Assembly: GCF_000695095.2 (NCBI RefSeq)
Contig: NZ_CP011454.1
Span: 1,736,001-1,800,000 of the forward strand
Source of the DNA: Gemmatimonas phototrophica
Lineage (GTDB): Bacteria > Gemmatimonadota > Gemmatimonadetes > Gemmatimonadales > Gemmatimonadaceae
Direction: 5' to 3'
DNA length: 64,000 nucleotides
Part shown: positions 4,247 through 15,503 of the stretch, piece by piece
Layout of the letters: every line of letters begins with the position of its first letter
How positions within the stretch are numbered: the stretch's first letter is position 1
Program-made: the position numbers and the translations under genes
Notes under the pieces: generated by a model
What the model saw: the letters and a program-made list of their open reading frames with translations, nothing else
The model's database searches: none
What the model was told of the DNA's origin: nothing

Positions 4247-4582
4247 ATGGAGCACACGATGGCGAACGCAGTCGAAGTGATGGACGATACCTTCGCGACG
4301 GAAATTGAGCAGCAGGCCGGTCTGTCGGTGGTGGATTTCTGGGCGACCTGGTGTGCCCCGTGCCGCATGATCGCCCCGATCGTGGAGCAGCTCGCGGCCG
4401 ACTACGCGGGCAAGGTGAAGGTGGCCAAGCTCGACGTGGACAACAACCAGCGCACCGCCGCCAAGTTCAACGTGCGGTCCATCCCCACGATCCTGTTCTT
4501 CAAGGACGGGAAGCTGGTGGATCAGGTTGTGGGCGCGGTGCCGCGTCCCGCCCTCGAAGCAAAGTTCAAGGAGCATGCCTGA
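4247..4582 (+). CDS. trxA: thioredoxin with WCAPC active site
   Basis: 111 residues, a single thioredoxin fold. The order is VVDFWATWCAPCRMIAPIV (active-site Cys pair), LDVDNNQRTAAKFNVRSIPT with the cis-proline, and LFFKDGKLVDQVVG. The active site is CAPC in place of the more common CGPC; this variant is frequent in bacteria and remains redox-active. An AGGTGA element lies shortly before the ATG at 4247; a second in-frame ATG at 4259 is also possible. The 3' end overlaps the rsmI start by eight bases. General cytosolic disulfide reductase. Confidence 0.93.
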   Translation: MEHTMANAVEVMDDTFATEIEQQAGLSVVDFWATWCAPCRMIAPIVEQLAADYAGKVKVAKLDVDNNQRTAAKFNVRSIPTILFFKDGKLVDQVVGAVPRPALEAKFKEHA

Positions 4583-5504
4583 GGCTGACGTGAGTCAGCC
4601 CGGCACCACCCCCGATCTGCCGGCCGCTGAGGGTGCCTCGGCGCTGGCGGGGCGGGCGGCGGAACTCTGGCCCCAGGCAATCACGCCTGGGGCTTTGCAC
4701 GTCGTAAGCACACCCATTGGGCACCTCGGGGACATCACCCTGCGGGCGCTGGCGGTGCTGCGCGAAGCGGCCGTGATCTGCTGTGAGGACACCCGGCACG
4801 CGCGCCCCTTGCTCGACCGCTACGGCATTGGCACCTCCACGCTGGCGCTCCACGAGCACAATGAAGCCAGCATGATTCCCCGGCTGCTCGACCGTCTGCG
4901 CGCCGGAGAAGGGGTGGCGCTCATCAGCGACGCCGGCACGCCCCTGGTCTCAGACCCGGGGGCGCGGCTGGTGGATGCCGCAATCTCGGCCGGGCTGCGG
5001 GTGGTGCCTATTCCCGGGGCCTCCGCCACACTGGCCGCTCTGGTGGCCTGCGGCCTCACGCCGCACCCCTTTACCGTGCTTGGCTTTCTCGACCGGAAGG
5101 GGAAGGAGCGGGAGAACGCCCTCGCCATGGCCGTACGCCTGCCTCATGCCGTGGTGCTCTTCGAGTCGCCCAACCGGTTGGTGGATACCTTGCGCGACCT
5201 GGCGGTGCTGGCCGGGACCGGGCGCGCCGTGGCCGTGGCCCGAGAGCTCACCAAGCATTTCGAAGAGATCAAGCGCGGAACGCTGGAGGAGGTCGCCGCG
5301 TATTACGAAGCGGTACCCCCTCGGGGAGAAATCGTGATCGTGCTGGCTGGCGCTACGGCCGCGGAACCCACGGAAGACGGCCTGCGCGCGACTGCCGATG
5401 CATTGCGCGCCGAGGGCTTCCGCCCGCGCGACATCGTTCGCATGCTCATGGACGAGCACGGCGCCAGTCGTAACCTTGCGTATCGTCTCGCCCACGACAC
5501 CTGA
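4575..5504 (+). CDS. rsmI: 16S rRNA (cytidine(1402)-2'-O)-methyltransferase
   Basis: RsmI methylates the ribose of C1402 in the decoding centre of the 30S subunit using SAM. The tetrapyrrole-methylase fold is clear: LHVVSTPIGHLGDITLRAL, CCEDTRHARPLL, ALHEHNEAS, VALISDAGTPLVSDPG, VVPIPGASATLAAL, then FLDRKGKE and VLFESPNRLVDTL. An N-terminal tail of about 40 residues precedes the fold. The start is uncertain: ATG 4575 overlaps the trxA stop, but its upstream AAGGAG is only one base away; the in-frame GTG at 4590 has a better-spaced GAGG. Translational coupling to trxA is likely in either case. The downstream DUF4159 gene begins 11 bases later. Confidence 0.93.
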   Translation: MPEADVSQPGTTPDLPAAEGASALAGRAAELWPQAITPGALHVVSTPIGHLGDITLRALAVLREAAVICCEDTRHARPLLDRYGIGTSTLALHEHNEASMIPRLLDRLRAGEGVALISDAGTPLVSDPGARLVDAAISAGLRVVPIPGASATLAALVACGLTPHPFTVLGFLDRKGKERENALAMAVRLPHAVVLFESPNRLVDTLRDLAVLAGTGRAVAVARELTKHFEEIKRGTLEEVAAYYEAVPPRGEIVIVLAGATAAEPTEDGLRATADALRAEGFRPRDIVRMLMDEHGASRNLAYRLAHDT

Positions 5505-5515
5505 TCCGGTCCCGC

Positions 5516-6241
5516 ATGCCACTCCCGCAGCGCCTGCTCCGTCCCGTCCTGCTCGCTGCGTGTCTCGCCGTTCCGGCCGGACTGGTGGCGGCGCGGCCGT
5601 TTGCAGCGCCCGTGACCGCAGCGACTGCTGGCCCCGGCCGGCTGGCCGTGGCGCGCCTGCAGTACGAAGGGGGCGGTGACTGGTACGCCAATCCGTCCAG
5701 CTTGCCCAACCTCATTCGCGCCATCGCGGAGCGTACCTCGCTTCCTATTGAGCGCGCCGAGGCCAAGGTCACGCTCACCGATTCGGCGCTCTTTGATTTT
5801 CCGTTTCTCCATGCCACCGGGCACGGGGAAATGAAGTTCAGTGAAGTCGAAGCACGCCGGTTGCGCGAGTACCTCACGCGCGGCGGCTTCCTGCATGTGG
5901 ATGACAACTACGGGCTCGACGAAAGCTTTCGCCGCGAGATCGTGAAGGTGTTTCCCGATCGCCCGCTGGTGGAAGTGCCCACGTCGCACCCCATTTACCA
6001 TCTCGTGTATGAGTTCCCCAACGGCCTGCCCAAAGTGCATGAGCACGACGGCAAGCCGGCCAAGGGGTACGGCATTTTCATTGGGAACCGGCTCGCGCTG
6101 TACTACACCTATTCCGCCGATCTCGGAAACGGCTGGGAAGACGTGGGCACGTATCCGGACCCACCAGCTATCCACGAGCAGGCGCTACGGCTTGGCGTGA
6201 ATCTCTTTACTTACGCGGCCACCAGCCGCGTGCAGCCGTGA
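5516..6241 (+). CDS. DUF4159 domain protein, exported
   Basis: 241 residues. The N-terminus (about 8-26) is hydrophobic and ends with Ala residues, consistent with a signal peptide. The mature part opens LAVARLQYEGGGDWYANPS and continues through FLHATGHGEMKFSE and REYLTRGGFLHVDDNYGLDE, the hallmarks of DUF4159, thought to be a class I glutamine-amidotransferase-like Rossmann fold. The position of the usual GATase cysteine is Asp (Asp129/Asp130), so amidotransferase chemistry is not expected. The gene starts 11 bases after rsmI and ends 7 bases before the DUF4175 gene; these and the two genes after them look like one transcription unit. Its role is not established; the neighbours point to the cell envelope. 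Confidence 0.85.
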   Translation: MPLPQRLLRPVLLAACLAVPAGLVAARPFAAPVTAATAGPGRLAVARLQYEGGGDWYANPSSLPNLIRAIAERTSLPIERAEAKVTLTDSALFDFPFLHATGHGEMKFSEVEARRLREYLTRGGFLHVDDNYGLDESFRREIVKVFPDRPLVEVPTSHPIYHLVYEFPNGLPKVHEHDGKPAKGYGIFIGNRLALYYTYSADLGNGWEDVGTYPDPPAIHEQALRLGVNLFTYAATSRVQP

Positions 6242-6248
6242 TGCCCAC

Positions 6249-9200
6249 ATGACCGCACCGGCACTTGGTGGACTGCAGGCCGCGACACCCGCCGTTGGAC
6301 GCGCACTCGAAACGCGCCTTGGCGGTGAACAGCAGGCGTTGGCAACCCGAGGGACGGCCGCTGCCGCGTTGGGCGCCGTCGCGGTGTTGGCGACAGGGCT
6401 GGCTCTCGCCGCCTTTGTGCTGGCCGACGGGCGGTGGCTCACTCTTCCCGCCCCGCTGCCGTTGCTGGCGGCCGTGGTGGCCGTGAGTGGTGCGGGCGCG
6501 ATGTTTTTGTGGCGGTGGCGCAAGGTGCAGGCCGTACTGCAACTGCCGTCGCTGGCGGGCACCGTGGAACGCGAACAGCAGTTGCGCGAAGGCTCACTGC
6601 GTGGCGCGCTGGAAGTGGCGAGTACCGGTGCGTTGGGCGCCCGTGCTGCCGACGATGTCGCGCGTCGCCTTCAGGCCGGCCCACTGGTCCCGGCCCTGAC
6701 CGGTTCGCTCACGAAAGCGTTGATGCTGGCCGCCGCAGCGGCGGCCGTAGGTGCGGCGCTCGTGGCTGGTGCCGCGCGCCTCGCGCCGGACGGGTTGGCG
6801 GCCGTGCTGCAGCCGGTGAGCGCATGGCGTGGTACGCTGTTGCCGGCGCTGGCCTTTGATGATCTCACCACCCGCGTCCCGCGCGGCATGCCGGTCACCG
6901 TGCGTGTGCTGGCCACTGGGCGACAGACGGTCACCATATCCCGGCGGGCCGAAGGGGAAGCGTGGAGTGATACGCTGCTGACCGTGCCGGAAAACGGCGT
7001 GGTCATGTTGGCGCTCGGGCCGGTGCGTGCGGCGACCTCCCTGCGTGTGTCCGATGGACGGTCGGAGGAGCTGTCGGCCACGCTGGTGGTGGAAGAGCGC
7101 GGCTGGATTGGGGAGGTGTCGCTGCGGGCCATCTATCCGGCCTACCTCGGTCGCGCCGACGAAACGCTGGAACCGGTACCGCCCCTGCGCGTGCCACGTG
7201 GGACGCAGATTCGCCTGCGGGCCATGCTGCGCGGTGGTGCCCGCAACGCCGTGCTGACCGACGGACGGAGCCGTGTGCCGCTCACGGCGGTCAACGGCGG
7301 CACAGGCGAAGGGGGCGTGGCCGAAGGGCTGTTCACCGTTGATCGTGATGGCGCGTGGCAGTGGCAGGCCGAGGCGACGCCGCGGGCCGATGGCGCGGTG
7401 TTGCCCCCAGAACTCCCGGATTCATTGCCGTTCACCGTCATTCCTGATCAGGTGCCCGCTGTGGTAATTGTGGCGCCGGCCACCGACACGGCCATTGGGC
7501 CCACGGGTGAAGTGGCCGTGATTGTGGATGCCGGTGATGATCATGGCGTTGCACGGGTGCATCTGGTGATGTGGAAGGAACTGGCCAACGGCGGTGGCTC
7601 CATTACGCGTGAGCGGGTGGAGGTGGCTACGCCGCAATCGCCGGTGTTTGAAGGCGGCACGACCATCACGTTGGACGGGCGTGGGCTGGAGCCGGGCGAC
7701 AAGCTGCACGTGACCGCCGTGGCCACCGACGACTCGCCGTGGGCGCAGCAGGCACAGAGCGCCGAAGTCATTCTGCGCATGCCAACGCTGTCCGAGCAGC
7801 GCGCCATGGCGCGCTCCATGGCCGACTCATTGGCCGCCAAGGCGCTCCAGTTGGCACAGCAGGAAAAGCGGTTGCAGCAGAACACTGCCGACGCCTCACG
7901 CAGCCGCGACCTCAAGGCCAATGGTGGCGATCAGTCTTCGTCGAACGGTGCCAAGAGTGATGCCGCCAAGCAGATGAGCTTCACGCAGGCGGAGAAGGCC
8001 AAGCAACTCGCGCGCGATCAGCAGCAGCTGTCGGCCAAGGTGGATTCGCTGCGCATGAACGCCAAGGAACTTGAGTCTCGACTCAAGAACGCCAACGCGC
8101 TCGACACCACCATGGCGTCGCGCATGCGCGACATCCAGAAGATGCTGCGCGATGCCATGACGCCCGAAATGCAGAAGCAGCTCGAGGCGCTGAATAAGAA
8201 TTCGGACAAGCTGAGCGGCTCCCAGGCCCAGCAGTCCATGCAACAGTTGGCCGACGCGCAGAAGCAGATGCGCGAGCAGCTCGAGAAGAGCGCCGAAATG
8301 CTCAAACGGGCGGCGTTGGAAGGCGCCATGCAAACACTGCGCGACGACGCCAAGGAGCTGTCGAAGGCGCAGCAGCAGATGGCCGACCGCATGGACGGCA
8401 AGAACGACGGCAAGTCGCCGCAGCAGGGGCAGGGCAAGCCGGGCGAACGGAGCACCACGCCGGCCAACCAGGACCAGGACCCCCGTTCGCTGGCCGACCG
8501 GTCGCGCGATTTGGAGCGTGAAGTGCAGGCGTTGGCCAAGCGTCTCGAAGAGGCGGGGGCCAAGCCCGGCGCATCCAAGACCCGCGAAGCGCAGCCGCTG
8601 GCCAAGGAAGCCGCCGACGCCATGAGCAAGGCCGCCGAGCAGCAACGGCAGCAGCAACAGGCGCAGCAGCAGGGCCAGCAAGGCCAGCAACAGCCCGGCC
8701 AGCAACAGCAGGGTCAGCAAGGACAACAGGGCCAGCAGGGCCAGAAGCAGCAAGGGCAACAGGGCCAGCAGGGGCAGCAAGGCCAGCAGGGCCAGCAAGG
8801 GCAACAGGGTCAGCAGGGCCAACAAGGCCAGCAAGGCCAGCAAGGCCAGCAGGGTCAGAAGTCGGGGGCCGAACAGGCCCGTCAGGCCGCCGAGGCCATG
8901 GAGCGTGCGGCACAGCAGCTGTCGCAGGCGCGCGACGCACAGGTGAATGCGTGGAAGGGGGAGCTGTCCGATCAGCTCGACCAGTCCATCAACGAAACCA
9001 TGCAGCTGGCGCGGCAGCAGGCCGAGTTGGAGAAGAAGATGCGCCAGCAGGGGCAGCAAGGCGCGCAGGGCATGCAGGGGGAGCAGAGCGCCCTGCAGCA
9101 GGGTGTGCAGCAGGCGGCCGAACGGCTCGAAGAAGCTGGTCGCTCGTCGTCGTTGCTGTCGCAGCGTTCGCAGAAGCAGATGGGTGAAGCGCAGCGCCGG

Positions 9201-9893
9201 GTGCAACAGGCCACGCAGGCCATGCAGCAGGCAGGGCAGGGACAGCCCGGCGGCAGCGAGCAGGCGCAGAATGCCATGAAGGACGCCACCGAGGCGCTCA
9301 ACCAGGCGCTCAGCTCACTCGTGCGCGACCGCGAACGCGTGAACAACGCGCAGTCGGCCTCCGGCTTCACCGAAATGATGGAGCAGCTCAAGCAGCTTGC
9401 TCAGCAGCAGGGGCAGCTTAACAGTCAGATGCAGGGGCTCAACATGATGCCGGGCGGCGCCAAGGGAGATCAGGCGCAGCAACAGGCGCGTGTGCTGGCG
9501 CGGCAGCAGCGCGAAGTGGCGCGCAGCCTCAACGACTTCTCCGACGCCGACGAAACCGGCCGCACGGATGCCCTCGCCAAGGAAGCGCAGCAGCTGGCGC
9601 AGCAGCTTGAACGGGGCGGGCTCGACCCCGCCGTGGCCGCGCGTCAGCAGCAGCTCTATCGTCGCCTGCTCGACGCCGGTCGCTTCCTCGAACAGGAGGA
9701 GCGGGATGACCAGGGACCGCGTGAAGCCAAGGCGGGGAACGGCGCCGGTGGTCGTGTTGATGGGTCGCAGTCTGGGAAGGCCGCCAGCAAGTACGCGCCG
9801 CCCACCTGGAACGACCTGCGTGGCCTTGGCCCCGACGAGCGTCGTCTGGTGGTGGAATACTTCCGCCGACTCAATGGCAGCACACCGCCGTAA
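6249..9893 (+). CDS. DUF4175 family protein: membrane-anchored, long coiled-coil with Gln-Gly repeat
   Basis: 1214 residues. Three hydrophobic segments lie near residues 34-57, 62-82 and 155-180, followed by beta-rich regions (about 190-510) with repeated EVSLRAIYPAYLGR- and VIPDQVPAVVIVAP-like elements, which fits DUF4175. From about 510 on the chain is Gln/Lys/Glu/Ala-rich and should form long coiled coils, interrupted near residues 797-871 by a Gln-Gln-Gly repeat. The C-terminus has PPTWNDLRGLGPDERRLVVEY, a compact conserved-looking tail followed by a few residues. It is large for the family, mainly through the coiled coils. It is placed between the DUF4159 gene (7 bases) and the TPR gene (overlap 20 bases), so the products probably act together, perhaps as a scaffold spanning the inner membrane. 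Molecular function unknown. Confidence 0.85.
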   Translation: MTAPALGGLQAATPAVGRALETRLGGEQQALATRGTAAAALGAVAVLATGLALAAFVLADGRWLTLPAPLPLLAAVVAVSGAGAMFLWRWRKVQAVLQLPSLAGTVEREQQLREGSLRGALEVASTGALGARAADDVARRLQAGPLVPALTGSLTKALMLAAAAAAVGAALVAGAARLAPDGLAAVLQPVSAWRGTLLPALAFDDLTTRVPRGMPVTVRVLATGRQTVTISRRAEGEAWSDTLLTVPENGVVMLALGPVRAATSLRVSDGRSEELSATLVVEERGWIGEVSLRAIYPAYLGRADETLEPVPPLRVPRGTQIRLRAMLRGGARNAVLTDGRSRVPLTAVNGGTGEGGVAEGLFTVDRDGAWQWQAEATPRADGAVLPPELPDSLPFTVIPDQVPAVVIVAPATDTAIGPTGEVAVIVDAGDDHGVARVHLVMWKELANGGGSITRERVEVATPQSPVFEGGTTITLDGRGLEPGDKLHVTAVATDDSPWAQQAQSAEVILRMPTLSEQRAMARSMADSLAAKALQLAQQEKRLQQNTADASRSRDLKANGGDQSSSNGAKSDAAKQMSFTQAEKAKQLARDQQQLSAKVDSLRMNAKELESRLKNANALDTTMASRMRDIQKMLRDAMTPEMQKQLEALNKNSDKLSGSQAQQSMQQLADAQKQMREQLEKSAEMLKRAALEGAMQTLRDDAKELSKAQQQMADRMDGKNDGKSPQQGQGKPGERSTTPANQDQDPRSLADRSRDLEREVQALAKRLEEAGAKPGASKTREAQPLAKEAADAMSKAAEQQRQQQQAQQQGQQGQQQPGQQQQGQQGQQGQQGQKQQGQQGQQGQQGQQGQQGQQGQQGQQGQQGQQGQQGQKSGAEQARQAAEAMERAAQQLSQARDAQVNAWKGELSDQLDQSINETMQLARQQAELEKKMRQQGQQGAQGMQGEQSALQQGVQQAAERLEEAGRSSSLLSQRSQKQMGEAQRRVQQATQAMQQAGQGQPGGSEQAQNAMKDATEALNQALSSLVRDRERVNNAQSASGFTEMMEQLKQLAQQQGQLNSQMQGLNMMPGGAKGDQAQQQARVLARQQREVARSLNDFSDADETGRTDALAKEAQQLAQQLERGGLDPAVAARQQQLYRRLLDAGRFLEQEERDDQGPREAKAGNGAGGRVDGSQSGKAASKYAPPTWNDLRGLGPDERRLVVEYFRRLNGSTPP
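8638..8861 (+). repeat. in-frame nine-base repeat encoding Gln-Gln-Gly units
   Basis: About 224 bases of imperfect tandem repeat, unit roughly GGC CAG CAA / GGC CAG CAG / GGG CAA CAG, inside the DUF4175 gene. Third-position variation (CAG/CAA, GGC/GGG/GGT) shows the protein repeat is kept while the DNA drifts. The clean run has more than ten consecutive GQQ units, ending at GQKSGAEQ. Low-complexity, probably flexible; a site where length differences between strains are expected. Confidence 0.9.
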
Positions 9894-11643
9894 CAGCGGG
9901 CGTTCGCCGCTTCGCCGTTGCTGCGCCATTGCTCTCGGTGCGGTGGTTGCGGCGTGGCCGCTTCCTGCTGTGGCGCAGGCTACGACGCCGGCCACCAGCG
10001 CCGCCGACGCGCTCACACGCGCGCTGGAGGCAGAAGACAAGCGCAACACCGCCGTCGCCTCTGTCGCCTATCGTGAGGTGCTCCAGCGCGCGCTCACCGT
10101 TGGCAACACCGATGGTGATCGGGTGGCGCTGGCCATCCTCGGGCTCGAGCGCGTGTGGGTGGATGCCGGAATGCTCGACTCCATCGTGCCGGTGGTGACG
10201 CGGGTGCTGCAGCTCCGCCCCAACGATCCCACGGCGCGTTCGGTACAACTGCGCACCCTGGTCACCATGGGGCGCGACAGCGACGCGCGCGAAGCCTTTA
10301 CCACCTGGCGTCGGGCGGCCGGCAACGATGCCGCCCCCTTTCGCGAGTACGCTCGGCTCCTCATGCAGCAGGGACGCACGCTGGCGGCCGATAGTGTGCT
10401 TGCTGACGCGTCGCGGCTGATGGGCGCCGGTGGCGCCCTCTCCGGAGAAACGGCGCAGTTGCACATTGCGCTGCAACGGTGGGTACCGGCAGCGGCCGCG
10501 TTTCGCGAATCGCTCACCGAGCAACCGTGGCTCGAAACGGCGGCGCTCTTTGGTTTGCAGCGGGCCCCTGCCACCGTTCGCGATTCCATTCGTACCGTGT
10601 TGCTGGCCGACCCCGTTACGCTTGGCCCGCGTCGTGTCCTGTCGTCGCTGGAGTTTGCCTGGGGCGAACCACGTCGCGCGTGGAGCGCCATCAGTACCGT
10701 GCCCTCCAACGATTCCACCACGGCGGCCTGGCGAGGATTTGCCGAACGCGCCGAGTTGAACGAGTCGTGGCTGGTGGCGCGCGACGCGTGGATGGCGGTG
10801 CTCGACAAGGCCGGCGATCTCGAGGCGCAGCAGCGCGCTGCCGATGCCGCGTTACGGGCCGGTGATGCGGCCGGGGCACTCGCACTGGTACGCCGCAAAG
10901 CCACCGGCGCCGGCAAGGGAACCGACAGCCTGCGTGTCAGGGCCCTGCTGGGGCTCGAAATTGCCGCGCTTGGTGAGTTGGGGCGCGGCGCCGAAGCCCA
11001 GCAGCAACTCAACGATGCGGCCCGGAAATTGGACCCCGATACGCGGGCCGCGTTGGCGCGCCCACTGGTTGGCGCCTGGTTGCGCGCCGGCGATGTGGAG
11101 CGGGCCCGCTCTGCCATGCAGGGGTCGGACTTGGTGGACGACGACGAAATGGTGGGCTGGCTGGCGCTCTACGACGGCGATCTGCTCACGGCCCGCAAGC
11201 GACTGGTACGCGCGGCCTCCAGCCGACCGGAGCTGGTGGATGCCCTCGGCATTCTGGCGCGCACTCGCGTGGACCAACTGCCCGGTGTAGGACAGGCATT
11301 TGTGCTGTTGGCGCGGAAGGATTCCACGGCGGCGGCCACGCGGTTTGCGCAGCTGGCAGATTCGGTCGGGAACGCTGCGCCGGCATTTCTGGCCCAGGCG
11401 GCAAGACTCTCGCCACGCGCCGGGGCCGTCAGTATCCACGAACGTATCGTCCGCGACTTCCCCAAGAGCCCCGAAGCGCCCGAATCGCTCCTGGCCTGGG
11501 CGCGCGCGCTACGCGATGCGGGCGACAAACCCGGGGCCATTGCCAGACTCGAACAGTTGCTGGTGGAGTACACCACCAGTGCACTGGCGCCGCAGGCGCG
11601 ACGGGATCTCGAGCGCCTCAAAGGCATGGTGCCGCCGCTGTAA
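9874..11643 (+). CDS. exported tetratricopeptide-repeat-like protein
   Basis: 589 residues from the ATG at 9874, inside the last codons of the DUF4175 gene (20-base overlap). A basic start is followed by a hydrophobic segment and an Ala-x-Ala cleavage site (LPAVAQA, about residue 32). The rest is helical and Ala/Arg-rich with TPR-like periodicity, e.g. LRPNDPTARSVQLRTLVTMG, ALRAGDAAGALALVRRK and, at the C-terminus, SIHERIVRDFPKSPEAPES with ARALRDAGDKPGAIARLEQL, which looks like a YbgF/BamD-type outer TPR pair. The reading frame stays open well upstream, but that part only mirrors the neighbouring gene. Probably a periplasmic scaffold that works with the DUF4175 and DUF4159 proteins. Confidence 0.8.
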   Translation: MAAHRRNSGRSPLRRCCAIALGAVVAAWPLPAVAQATTPATSAADALTRALEAEDKRNTAVASVAYREVLQRALTVGNTDGDRVALAILGLERVWVDAGMLDSIVPVVTRVLQLRPNDPTARSVQLRTLVTMGRDSDAREAFTTWRRAAGNDAAPFREYARLLMQQGRTLAADSVLADASRLMGAGGALSGETAQLHIALQRWVPAAAAFRESLTEQPWLETAALFGLQRAPATVRDSIRTVLLADPVTLGPRRVLSSLEFAWGEPRRAWSAISTVPSNDSTTAAWRGFAERAELNESWLVARDAWMAVLDKAGDLEAQQRAADAALRAGDAAGALALVRRKATGAGKGTDSLRVRALLGLEIAALGELGRGAEAQQQLNDAARKLDPDTRAALARPLVGAWLRAGDVERARSAMQGSDLVDDDEMVGWLALYDGDLLTARKRLVRAASSRPELVDALGILARTRVDQLPGVGQAFVLLARKDSTAAATRFAQLADSVGNAAPAFLAQAARLSPRAGAVSIHERIVRDFPKSPEAPESLLAWARALRDAGDKPGAIARLEQLLVEYTTSALAPQARRDLERLKGMVPPL

Positions 11644-11678
11644 GGGCGCGCCACCAGACAACCAGGATACATTTCGGC

Positions 11679-12944
11679 ATGCGCATGTCGCGGCTCTTTC
11701 TCCTGTTGGCCCTCTTCCTGAGCGGCGCGCCCCTCGCGCACGCGCAGCATCTGCTGCTGCCCATGGACGACGGGCAGCGCAATCACCTCAAGGCATACGG
11801 GGTCACGTACCAGGCGCTGAAGGCCGGCCAGAAAGCGGAGTGGCTGCTCAACTACCGCGGCGGTGCCTTCCTGCTCCCCGATGTCCCGGATCTCCGTAAG
11901 CGCGCCGCACTCGATGGCGTGACCGTGGAACCGTACACCGACGCCAACGTGGCGGCCGCGCGCGCTGAAATTGCCGGCGGCAACATGGACGCCGTGGTGC
12001 TCGAGCGCGCACCGAAGATTGCCATTTACCGTCCGGTGGATCAGCCACCCTGGGACGATGCCGTGACGCTCGCGCTGACTTACGCCGGCATTGAATTCAC
12101 GTCGGTGTGGGATGATGACGTGATGAAAGGCGATCTGTCCAAGTACGATTGGGTGCACTTGCACCACGAAGACTTTACGGGACAGTACAACAAGCTGTAT
12201 CTCGCCTATCGCGATGCCCCGTGGTTTGTCGCGCAGCGTGAACGTGATCTCTCCACTGGTCGCAAGTTCGGCAAGAATGACGTGCCAGGGCTCAAGAAGG
12301 CGGTCGCCGACAACATTCGCGGCTTTGTGGATCGCGGCGGCTTCCTCTTTGCCATGTGCGGCGCCACGGAGTCGCTCGACCTGTCCATTGCCTCACTGGC
12401 CGTGGACATCGCCGGTCCATTCTCCGATGGAACGCCGCCCGCGGCCGACGCCGACGCGCGTCTCGATTGGACGCGCGCGCTGGCCTTTCAGGGCGCCCAC
12501 GTGGAGCCCTCGCCGTATGTGAATGCCCTCAGTGACATTGACGGGCATCAGGTCAACGTGCCATCGCGTCGTCAGCCGCTCGGGGCGTTCTCCCTGTTCG
12601 GGTTTTCGGCCAAGCTGGACCCGGTGGCCACCATGTTGGTGCAGAACCATCGCACCGTCATCTCCGACTTCTACGGCGTGACCACCAGCTTCAACAAAGC
12701 GGTGGTAAAAGCCAACGTGACGGTGCTGGCGCAGGAAGAAGGCGCGCCGTGGTCCAAGTATCTGCACGGCGACTACGGCAAGGGTTCCTGGACCTTTCTG
12801 GGTGGGCACGACCCGGAAGATCCGCAGCACGCCATTGGCAGCGCGCCCACCGATCTGTCGTTGCACCCCAATTCCCCGGGCTATCGCCTGATCCTCAATA
12901 ACGTCCTCTTCCCGGCCGCCAAGAAGAAGCCGCGGAAGACGTGA
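11679..12944 (+). CDS. exported GATase1-like protein of unknown function
   Basis: 421 residues with a clean signal peptide (cleavage after AHA near residue 22). The mature protein opens HLLLPMDDGQRNHLKAYG. Two sections look like a class I glutamine-amidotransferase/ThuA-type fold: DDAVTLALTYAGIEFTSVWD, then FVDRGGFLFAMCGATESLDL with Cys227 at a nucleophile-elbow position, and later GSWTFLGGHDPED with His377. The RGGFL stretch matches TRGGFLHVDD of the DUF4159 protein in the same cluster. From memory, homologues in other phyla are labelled asparagine synthetase B; nothing here supports that, since there is no N-terminal Cys2 glutaminase and no ATP-pyrophosphatase motif. Substrate unknown; I infer an exported hydrolase-like or ligand-binding protein. 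It starts 36 bases after the TPR gene. Confidence 0.75.
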   Translation: MRMSRLFLLLALFLSGAPLAHAQHLLLPMDDGQRNHLKAYGVTYQALKAGQKAEWLLNYRGGAFLLPDVPDLRKRAALDGVTVEPYTDANVAAARAEIAGGNMDAVVLERAPKIAIYRPVDQPPWDDAVTLALTYAGIEFTSVWDDDVMKGDLSKYDWVHLHHEDFTGQYNKLYLAYRDAPWFVAQRERDLSTGRKFGKNDVPGLKKAVADNIRGFVDRGGFLFAMCGATESLDLSIASLAVDIAGPFSDGTPPAADADARLDWTRALAFQGAHVEPSPYVNALSDIDGHQVNVPSRRQPLGAFSLFGFSAKLDPVATMLVQNHRTVISDFYGVTTSFNKAVVKANVTVLAQEEGAPWSKYLHGDYGKGSWTFLGGHDPEDPQHAIGSAPTDLSLHPNSPGYRLILNNVLFPAAKKKPRKT

Positions 12945-12962: not shown

Positions 12963-15503
12963 GTGATGCTGGGGGAATCTGGTGAAGCGCGGCTGCTGCC
13001 CAAGGCCGCTGCCGCCATTCGTACGCAAATCAAACTGCATGGGGGCAACGAAGTCTGCTTCGTGTGCACCCTTGATGAGGACGGGCACCTGGCCACCGCG
13101 CGCAAGGTGGCGGCGGGCGACGTGCAGAGTGTGCTGGCGCTCCCCGGCGTGGCCGAGCGCGGCGAAGTGTTGGTGCACAATCATCCGTCGGGTGAACTCA
13201 CGCCCAGTGATGCCGACATGGAAGTGGCCTACCGTCTGCATGGCAACGGGGTGGGCTTTGCGATTGTCGACAACGAGGCCACGCGCGTCTACTTCGTGAC
13301 CGAAGTGCCTACCAGCAAGGCACTGGTACACGTGGACGCGGATGCGGTAGATGTGGCGCTGGGCCCTTACGGCCTCATTGCGCAGGCCATGCGTCAGGTA
13401 CACGGCGCGCGGGAGTACGAAGACCGCCCCAGCCAGCGCGCCATGGCGGTGCAGGTCACGGCCGCGTTCAACGAAGGTGGCGTCGCATTGCTGGAAGCCG
13501 GCACCGGCGTGGGCAAGTCGTTGGGCTATCTGGTGCCCGCCTTGCGTTGGGCCGCCGCCAATGGTGAACGCACCATTGTAAGCACCAACACCATCACGCT
13601 GCAGGAGCAGTTGGTGGCCAAGGATTTGCCGTTCCTGCAGCGTGCGCTCAGCGATCAGCCGGTTCGCTTCGCGTTGCTCAAGGGGTGGCGCAATTATCTC
13701 TGTCTCTATCGGCTGGAGCAGGCCCAGGGCGCCGGCGCGGCACTCTTTGAGGACAACGCCACCGAGGAGGTGGCGAAGATTGCCGAGTGGGCGCTGCGCA
13801 CCAAAGATGGGTCGCTTTCCGACCTGGCCACCGCGCCGCGCCCTGACGTGTGGGATGAAGTCGCTGCCGAGCCGGATTTGTGTGGGCGGCTCAAGTGCTC
13901 GTTCTACAACGACTGCTTTCTCTTCAAGGCGCGCAAGGAAGCGGCCAACGCCGACGTCGTGGTCGTGAACCATCATCTGCTGCTCTCCGATCTGGCCGTG
14001 CGGCGTCAGGCGCAGAATTGGGATGATGCGGCCGTGTTGCCGGCGTACAAGCGTCTGGTGGTGGACGAGGGGCACCATCTCGAAGACGCGGCAGCGTCAC
14101 ACCTGGGCAGCTCCATCACCCGTCGGGCGTTGGCCCGCATGTTCAATCGGCTCGAACGGCGCGGCAAGGGACTCTTGCCTGCGTTGTCGGCACGACTGGC
14201 GGGGAGCAAGGATCTGCTCAGCGTCGCCAGTCTCGACCTCGTGAACGAACGCTTGTTCTCAAGTGCCGTGACGGCGCGCGATCGTGTGCAGCTGTTGTTT
14301 GAACTCCTTGGCGCCGTGCTCGAAATGCAAGGCACGCCCGTCATGCGCCTCACGGGTGAGTTTCAACAGCACGACCTGTGGCGCAACGGCATTGATAGCA
14401 CGCTCAAGGAACTGCTCAACGAAATCGATGCGCTGGCCACCGGCCTCAAGGTGGTACGCGAACGTTTAGAGAGTGACCAGAAACGCGCCGAAGAGCTGGC
14501 CCCGTTGCTGAACGAAGTGCGCGCCGTCATGCGGCGGCTGGGGAGCGCTGGAGATGCCCTGGCCAAGGGGCTCATGCCCCCGGCCGACGGGCCGCCCGTG
14601 GTGCGCTGGATGGAGTTTCAGGGCAAGCCCACGGCCCCCGAACGCAATCTGGCCGTGCATTGTGTTCCGCTCGATCTGGCGCCCGTATTGCGCGAAGATC
14701 TGTTCGAGCGGGTGGAGACCGCGGTGATCACCAGTGCCACCCTGTCCACCCACGGCGGCTTTGATTTTCTCGAGCAACGCTTGGGCATTGATGACGCTCG
14801 GCGCAGCAAGCGCACGGCCGTGTTCCCGTCGCCCTTCGATTATCCCACGCAGGCCATGCTGGTGGTGCCAACGGACCTGCCGGCGCCGAACGAGAATGCG
14901 CGTGAGCATTTCGCGGCGGTATCGCGGCATCTGCGCGATCTCATGACCGCCAGTGACGGCGGCATCTTCGCGCTGTTCACCAGTCACCGCGATGTGCGCG
15001 AGATGGCCGAGTGGTTGCGCGGGCCGGGCAACGGCGGTGGGTGGCCGTTGCTCGTGCACGGCGAAGAGCCGCGCGACATTCTGCTGCAGCGGTTCCGCGA
15101 CGCGGGGCGCGCGGTGCTGCTGGGCACCGCGACGTTCTGGGAAGGGGTGGACGTTCCCGGTGATGCGCTGCGCGGGCTGCTCATTGCCAAGCTGCCGTTC
15201 CGCGTGCCCACCGAGCCCATGGTGGCCGCGCAGTGCGAAGCCATTGAAGCGCGTGGCGGCAACAGCTTTGGAGAGTTCATGCTGCCGCACGCGTCGTTGC
15301 GGCTCAAGCAGGGCTTTGGCCGACTTATTCGCACGGGGACCGACGCCGGGGTGGTGGTGCTGAGTGATCCCCGAGTGGTGACCAAGCGCTACGGACGCGA
15401 ATTGCTCGACGCCCTGCCGCCGGCGAAGCGAGTGGTTGGGGCATGGGGGGACATCCGTGGTGAAGTGTCCCGCTTTTATCGGCAACGACGGCCCCAGCCA
15501 TAG
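12963..15503 (+). CDS. JAMM/RadC-like domain fused to DinG/XPD-type Fe-S helicase
   Basis: 846 residues. Residues 1-115 form a JAB/MPN domain with HNHPSG at 72-77 and the downstream PSDAD (Asp85), the metal-binding H-x-H...D set of RadC-like JAMM proteins. From about 150 a superfamily 2 DNA helicase follows: Walker A GTGVGKS (180-186), four cysteines spaced like the XPD/DinG iron-sulfur cluster (247, 307, 312, 318), a DEGH motif II (368-371; DEAH in most relatives), and motif VI QGFGRLIRTGTD near the C-terminus. DinG-type enzymes unwind 5'-tailed DNA, R-loops or G-quadruplexes. The start is either GTG 12963 or the adjacent ATG 12966; residue numbers use the former. It lies 18 bases after the GATase-like gene. 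The domain pairing suggests DNA repair; the substrate of the JAMM part is unknown. Confidence 0.88.
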   Translation: MMLGESGEARLLPKAAAAIRTQIKLHGGNEVCFVCTLDEDGHLATARKVAAGDVQSVLALPGVAERGEVLVHNHPSGELTPSDADMEVAYRLHGNGVGFAIVDNEATRVYFVTEVPTSKALVHVDADAVDVALGPYGLIAQAMRQVHGAREYEDRPSQRAMAVQVTAAFNEGGVALLEAGTGVGKSLGYLVPALRWAAANGERTIVSTNTITLQEQLVAKDLPFLQRALSDQPVRFALLKGWRNYLCLYRLEQAQGAGAALFEDNATEEVAKIAEWALRTKDGSLSDLATAPRPDVWDEVAAEPDLCGRLKCSFYNDCFLFKARKEAANADVVVVNHHLLLSDLAVRRQAQNWDDAAVLPAYKRLVVDEGHHLEDAAASHLGSSITRRALARMFNRLERRGKGLLPALSARLAGSKDLLSVASLDLVNERLFSSAVTARDRVQLLFELLGAVLEMQGTPVMRLTGEFQQHDLWRNGIDSTLKELLNEIDALATGLKVVRERLESDQKRAEELAPLLNEVRAVMRRLGSAGDALAKGLMPPADGPPVVRWMEFQGKPTAPERNLAVHCVPLDLAPVLREDLFERVETAVITSATLSTHGGFDFLEQRLGIDDARRSKRTAVFPSPFDYPTQAMLVVPTDLPAPNENAREHFAAVSRHLRDLMTASDGGIFALFTSHRDVREMAEWLRGPGNGGGWPLLVHGEEPRDILLQRFRDAGRAVLLGTATFWEGVDVPGDALRGLLIAKLPFRVPTEPMVAAQCEAIEARGGNSFGEFMLPHASLRLKQGFGRLIRTGTDAGVVVLSDPRVVTKRYGRELLDALPPAKRVVGAWGDIRGEVSRFYRQRRPQP

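What the first reader, a model, noticed from the sequence alone, without database searches (positions are those of the whole stretch)
5516..12944. Four-gene envelope cluster of unknown function (DUF4159, DUF4175, TPR, GATase-like)
The genes are tightly packed (gaps 7 bases, 20-base overlap, 35 bases), and all four products have a signal or membrane segment. They combine a large coiled-coil scaffold, a TPR protein and two proteins that share an RGGFL-type core. No known pathway enzyme is included. From general knowledge DUF4159 genes often sit in MoxR/DUF58/vWA (Bat-like) loci; no MoxR ATPase or vWA protein is visible here, so this may be a reduced or different version. This is the best candidate in the window for an undescribed system.
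Basis: partly seen in the sequence, partly recalled or inferred. Interest (0 to 1): 0.65.

Follow-up and report, generated by a model that had tools for sequence, protein, structure and literature searches.

The report
Co-inherited four-gene cell-envelope module
Four neighbouring genes for exported proteins of unknown function are kept or lost together across almost the whole bacterial phylum Gemmatimonadota, even where they no longer lie side by side, so they very probably form one undescribed machine of the cell envelope, with a likely enzyme at its core.

Summary
In detail: four tightly packed genes (5516-12944) encode DUF4159, DUF4175-like, TPR and GATase1-like (P0004) proteins, each with a signal peptide or membrane segment. 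They are more than local neighbours. P0004 occurs in 179 of 200 Gemmatimonadota genomes; cluster-type DUF4159 occurs in 175 of those 179 and in 1 of the 21 without P0004, all five exceptions being fragmented assemblies. In another class the set is split into DUF4159-DUF4175 and TPR-GATase pairs at separate loci, yet all four are kept. In at least four lineages the module is missing while the neighbouring RsmI gene stays, often with DinG close by. MoxR is absent here, but two MoxR-DUF58-BatA loci elsewhere in the genome carry homologues of DUF4159 and DUF4175. The P0004 model has a ThuA/glutamine-amidotransferase-like fold with an invariant Cys after a core strand and invariant HLHHEDFTGQ, DxH and GGHDPED motifs, so it is probably an enzyme. 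Best reading: an inner-membrane scaffold carrying a periplasmic amide-hydrolase-like enzyme. That the four form a module is well supported within the phylum; a physical complex, its substrate and its mechanism are inferred. Distribution beyond the phylum was not testable.

The parts
5516..6241 (+). DUF4159 protein (P0002, 241 aa), signal peptide; cluster-type motifs GDWYANPSSLPNL, TGHG, HVDDNYGLDESF, HEHDG, GNGWED
   Evidence: PF13709 1.2e-64; PDB 4i66 Hoch_4089 is a sequence relative, E 8e-13; orthologue alignment A3; paralogues lack HEHDG
6249..9893 (+). DUF4175-like protein (P0003, 1214 aa): N-terminal hydrophobic helices, strand-rich Ig-like stretch ~205-510, then long Gln-rich, probably coiled-coil region with a Gln/Gly tract
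9874..11643 (+). exported TPR protein (P0001, 589 aa), C-terminal end weakly resembling YbgF/CpoB
11679..12944 (+). exported GATase1/ThuA-like protein (P0004, 421 aa); invariant C227, HLHHEDFTGQ 160-169, D288/H290, GGHDPED 375-381
4527..5504 (+). flanking gene, RsmI-like methylase (TP_methylase); not part of the module, kept where the module is missing
12963..15503 (+). flanking gene, DinG-like helicase with N-terminal RadC-like JAB domain; not part of the module

Best explanation
The four genes encode one functional module of the cell envelope. Shown here: within the phylum they are kept and lost together, linked or not, and all four carry export or membrane signals. Inferred: P0003 is anchored in the inner membrane and reaches into the periplasm through its Ig-like stretch and long coiled coil; the TPR protein is the adaptor of P0004 (the two stay adjacent where the other pair lies elsewhere); DUF4159 pairs with P0003. 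P0004 is a GATase-fold enzyme, either a Cys-His-Glu hydrolase (C227, H377, E380) or, like dimethylformamidase, a metal-dependent amide hydrolase, acting on an amide-containing envelope substrate, with DUF4159 as accessory or ligand-binding subunit. The module shares its DUF4159-DUF4175 half with MoxR-DUF58-BatA systems but has no AAA+ ATPase of its own.
For: Order RsmI-DUF4159-DUF4175-TPR-GATase-DinG in 80 Gemmatimonadaceae-type loci as far as the contigs reach (TPR-GATase spacing enlarged in L066, altered in L091) and in most loci from other families of the class. P0004 in 179/200 genomes; cluster-type DUF4159 in 175 of these and in 1 of 21 without (my tally: E <= 1e-47 versus E >= 1e-28 or none). 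In genomes whose locus lacks DUF4159 it lies elsewhere at 270-332 bits, while paralogues score under 100; in the other class DUF4159 and DUF4175 adjoin at one locus and TPR and GATase adjoin at another. Module missing with RsmI kept, DinG close by in many; at least three changes on a tree of flanking genes, and G124 is a fourth case. In family f1 genomes without P0004 the TPR profile gives under 30 bits versus 661-775 with it, and DUF4175 under 40 versus 548-665. Catalytic candidates are invariant in all 55 and 35 aligned sequences. Fold matches to ThuA, GATase and DMFase-like proteins at Z 9-11.6. DMFase holds an Fe amidase site in a ThuA-like domain (PMC7686228).
Against: No substrate, activity or interaction is shown. 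The model's coordinates were not inspected, so the triad rests on the order of secondary structure; residues ~280-340 have low pLDDT. Sequence profiles do not recognise P0004 as a glutamine amidotransferase. Co-inheritance could reflect a shared pathway rather than a physical complex. TPR and DUF4175 profiles are too weak outside family f1 to prove absence there. Nothing beyond the phylum was tested.
Confidence: 0.45

Rival explanations
1. A non-catalytic binding or structural assembly: P0004 and DUF4159 are ligand-binding subunits (P0004 with a GATase-like fold that has lost or never had activity), and the complex anchors or senses an envelope polymer.
For: GATase-like domains without the Cys occur fused to secreted M14 peptidases in the same phylum; the fold matches include ThuA-like proteins and domains of glycoside-acting enzymes.
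Against: C227 and a dense set of His/Asp/Glu residues are invariant down to 50% identity, more than a binding scaffold seems to need.
Confidence: 0.25
2. A MoxR-dependent system in disguise: the ATPase from one of the two MoxR-DUF58-BatA loci serves this cluster in trans.
For: Two MoxR loci with homologous DUF4175 and DUF4159 exist in the genome.
Against: Those loci carry their own DUF4175 and DUF4159 copies; no MoxR is in or near the cluster. Co-distribution of MoxR with the module was not tested.
Confidence: 0.15
3. Merely conserved gene order: unrelated genes of one operon with RsmI and DinG, co-transcribed but not co-functional.
For: RsmI and DinG are conserved neighbours as well.
Against: The four are missing together while RsmI and often DinG remain, and they persist together when split over two loci away from RsmI and DinG.
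Confidence: 0.05

Closest known systems
MoxR-DUF58-BatA (aerotolerance-type) loci, here L005 and L007 of the same genome
   Same: Homologous DUF4159 and DUF4175 proteins; L007 also has a TPR and a GATase1_like protein
   Different: No MoxR, DUF58 or BatA/vWA; P0004 and its TPR partner show no clear similarity to L007's GATase1_like and TPR proteins; own DUF4159 motifs
ThuA-like / class I glutamine amidotransferase-like fold proteins, including domain III of dimethylformamidase and N-acetyl-(R)-beta-phenylalanine acylase
   Same: Fold of residues ~108-414, Z 9-11.6; a conserved residue directly after a core strand (C227) and His/Glu after a late strand
   Different: 9-17% identity, no profile match; extra N-terminal ~110 residues; the DMFase iron ligands are Tyr-Tyr-Glu (PMC7686228), here Cys plus His/Asp/Glu
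PDB 4i66, Hoch_4089 of Haliangium ochraceum (DUF4159)
   Same: Sequence relative of P0002 over residues 53-234
   Different: No HEHDG, TGHG or GNGWED motifs; deposited as uncharacterized
Gemmatimonadota M14 carboxypeptidases with a GATase-like C-terminal domain (L160, L161)
   Same: Nearest sequence relatives of P0004 found, 27-39% identity over short stretches
   Different: No Cys at the elbow (SDQAVD or FDASVD in place of MCGATE), fused to a peptidase

Membership tests
MoxR-DUF58-BatA system | MoxR AAA+ ATPase in the locus | tested here: not met
   four full MoxR genes in the genome, none in the window
MoxR-DUF58-BatA system | DUF58 and BatA/vWA proteins in the locus | tested here: not met
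   flanking genes scanned between 215 and 17293 give LPG_synthase_TM, Hpt, TP_methylase, RadC/DinG, FAA_hydrolase or nothing; the genome was not searched for stand-alone DUF58
MoxR-DUF58-BatA system | DUF4159 and DUF4175 accessory proteins | tested here: met
Pfam DUF4159 (PF13709) | score above curated cut-off | tested here: met
   218 versus 25.9 bits
Pfam DUF4175 (PF13779) | score above curated cut-off | tested here: not met
   18.4 versus 27.3 bits for P0003; 21 of 45 orthologue fragments match at E<=0.01, an orthologue in the other class reaches 28.6, and the paralogue at 46 bits aligns to the family profile at E=1e-18: homologous but divergent
class I glutamine amidotransferase-like / ThuA-like fold | alpha/beta/alpha GATase-like fold | tested here: met
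   model pLDDT 81, pTM 0.83; Foldseek E to 2e-06 and VIA-align Z to 11.6
class I glutamine amidotransferase | Cys nucleophile elbow with His-Glu dyad | tested here: inconclusive
   C227 follows strand 222-226 and precedes helix 228-238; H377-D-P-E380 follows strand 370-374; all invariant, but proximity in three dimensions was not inspected
class I glutamine amidotransferase | glutaminase activity | not testable with these tools
   needs purified protein

The most novel reading that the evidence does not exclude
A phylum-wide periplasmic machine with a new enzyme family (P0004) at its core: a membrane-anchored scaffold positions a GATase-fold Cys- or metal-dependent amide hydrolase, related to MoxR-Bat systems through its DUF4159-DUF4175 half only, and acting on an envelope substrate not yet recognised.
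Probability: 0.35. Interest if true: 0.75.

Novelty: new variant of a known kind. Interest (0 to 1): 0.5.

Why it matters
DUF4159 is named in none of the 5.39 million papers held, and DUF4175 in one (AdvA of Acinetobacter baumannii, a cell-division protein). This gives a defined, testable unit: four genes inherited together, a candidate catalytic residue set, and natural absences in at least four lineages to compare. It also ties DUF4159 and DUF4175 to a context without a local MoxR, so their role may not depend on the AAA+ ATPase.

Tried and rejected
Relatives of P0004 in plasmids and viral contigs: none found. Reaching other phyla: the genome-contig scan listed 80 of 310 loci, apparently Gemmatimonadota (two titles, L034 and L043, name other groups), and 'relatives' stayed inside the phylum; distribution beyond the phylum is untested. 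From memory only: Bacteroidota proteins annotated 'asparagine synthetase B' seem to carry similar LLNYRGGSF and HLHHEDFTGQ stretches; no such sequence could be compared here, and a paper naming such a gene among iron-regulated ones (PMC9478572) was not shown to mean the same family. Defence system: no PADLOC match. Promoter and terminator scans: at background level. P0004 versus P0002 profiles: only a 16-column motif. P0004 versus L007's GATase1_like: no relation detected. Fold search with the DUF4175 N-terminal model: only generic tandem Ig-like matches. Searches failed on a wrong frame; the scan was repeated with corrected coordinates.

Full report
WHAT IS THERE. The window lies in a 4.72-Mb single-contig genome (G000:C1:1736001-1800000). 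Four + strand genes fill 5516-12944 as described. P0002 is a clear DUF4159 protein (218 bits). P0003 is DUF4175-like but below Pfam's cut-off. P0001 has weak TPR matches, with a C-terminal end weakly resembling YbgF/CpoB. P0004 matches no Pfam or NCBIfam family. All carry a signal peptide or hydrophobic segments (P0004's signal peptide was read by eye). RsmI and DinG flank the four with gaps of 11 and 18 bases, so transcription may include them; no promoter or terminator signal rises above background.

NEIGHBOURHOOD. In 80 related loci the order RsmI-DUF4159-DUF4175-TPR-GATase-DinG recurs as far as the contigs reach; the TPR and P0004 matches lie several kilobases apart in L066, the TPR match ends early in L091, and L082 and L098 show no DinG match. 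Most loci from other families of the class show the same order, some without DinG and some without DUF4159 at that place. Since RsmI and DinG are conserved too, order alone proves little.

CO-INHERITANCE. P0004 was found in 179 of 200 phylum genomes, usually once (some have a second short or weak match). With a profile of cluster-type DUF4159 (A3) over 200 phylum genomes bearing the same handles, scores fall into two groups: E <= 1e-47, and E >= 1e-28 or nothing. By my tally from the two tables, P0004-positive genomes have it in 175 of 179 cases, P0004-negative ones in 1 of 21. The five exceptions (G195, G042, G090, G167, G130) have 290 to 990 contigs; in G130 the contig ends inside the cluster (L162). 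The Fisher value ignores relatedness and is not used as a probability. Where DUF4159 is missing beside the cluster it lies elsewhere in the genome: f7 genomes, G034 and f8. In f8 (L154/L195) a histidine kinase and further genes sit between RsmI-DUF4159 and DUF4175-TPR-GATase. In the other class (f10) DUF4159 and DUF4175 adjoin at one locus (L189, L190, L196) and TPR and GATase at another (L149, L152), and the f10 TPR protein aligns over its length to the cluster's TPR profile (hhalign probability 74%, E=3e-5). Keeping four genes together across two loci is stronger evidence of shared function than adjacency.

BLOCK ABSENCE. Of 20 genomes scored P0004-negative and searched with RsmI, 19 keep it. 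One of these, G130, is a contig end. At the RsmI loci fetched from 15 of the others none of the four genes is found, and in many DinG or FAA follows closely; in family f6 about 1.3-1.6 kb of other sequence lies between RsmI and DinG, and in G124 DinG is not nearby. On a tree of flanking genes the absence needs at least three changes; G124, whose genus-mates G119 and G175 have P0004, was not on that tree and is a fourth case. In family f1, where the profiles are sharp, TPR and DUF4175 are gone as well; outside f1 those profiles are too weak to prove absence (G051 keeps a DUF4175-like match of 101 bits, within the range of paralogues).

THE MoxR CONNECTION. The genome has four full MoxR genes, none in the window, and four DUF4159 genes. 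Locus L007 reads GATase1_like, unknown, TPR, DUF4159, MoxR, DUF58, BatA-vWA, DUF4175; locus L005 reads MoxR, DUF58, BatA-like, DUF4175, DUF4159. P0003's family profile aligns to both DUF4175 proteins (E=1e-18 and 3e-10). P0004 shows no relation to L007's GATase1_like protein and P0001 no more than a weak, TPR-level match to L007's TPR protein. So the module shares one half with MoxR-Bat loci and has a half of its own.

P0004. The AlphaFold model (pLDDT 81, pTM 0.83) has strand 222-226, then C227, then helix 228-238, and strand 370-374 followed by GGHDPED. Foldseek and VIA-align place ~108-414 with ThuA-like proteins, glutamine amidotransferases, dimethylformamidase and N-acetyl-(R)-beta-phenylalanine acylase (Z 9-11.6). 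C227, E231, H160, H163-E164-D165, Q169, D288, H290, N293, H363, H377-D378, E380-D381 and H384 are invariant in all 55 and 35 aligned sequences, down to 50% identity. Dimethylformamidase keeps a catalytic iron in a ThuA-like domain (PMC7686228), so both a Cys-type and a metal-type amide hydrolase remain open. The nearest sequence relatives found, GATase-like tails of secreted M14 carboxypeptidases, lack the Cys.

P0003 AND P0002. P0003's first 540 residues model well locally (pLDDT 90, pTM 0.61): helices around the hydrophobic segments, a strand-rich stretch ~205-510, then a helix opening the presumed coiled coil; fold matches are generic tandem Ig-like proteins. P0002 has one solved sequence relative (4i66). 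Cluster-type DUF4159 proteins share TGHG, HEHDG and LG-GWED motifs that the genome's three other DUF4159 proteins and 4i66 lack or alter.

CONCLUSION. That the four form a module is well supported within the phylum. Physical complex, topology and chemistry are inferred. Outside the phylum nothing was tested.

Noticed in passing
L160:6988-9945 and L161:1083-3782: Secreted M14 zinc carboxypeptidases with a GATase1-like C-terminal domain weakly similar to P0004, without the Cys elbow (Pfam M14 match checked for L160 only).
   Followed up: partly
window 12963-15503; L165 9898-12096; L166 4116-6371: The window's DinG-like helicase carries an N-terminal RadC-like JAB domain; the ORFs in L165 and L166, which lack the module, are shorter and seem to lack it.
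   Followed up: no
L195:3110-8108: In an f8 genome a histidine kinase, a response-regulator-like gene and further unknown genes sit between DUF4159 and DUF4175.
   Followed up: partly
L006:8966-9574 (-): A fourth DUF4159 gene in the same genome (G000:C1:4174965-4175573), with no MoxR found beside it.
   Followed up: no
L171:4819-6462: Unidentified stretch of about 1.6 kb between RsmI and DinG in family f6, at the place of the missing module.
   Followed up: no
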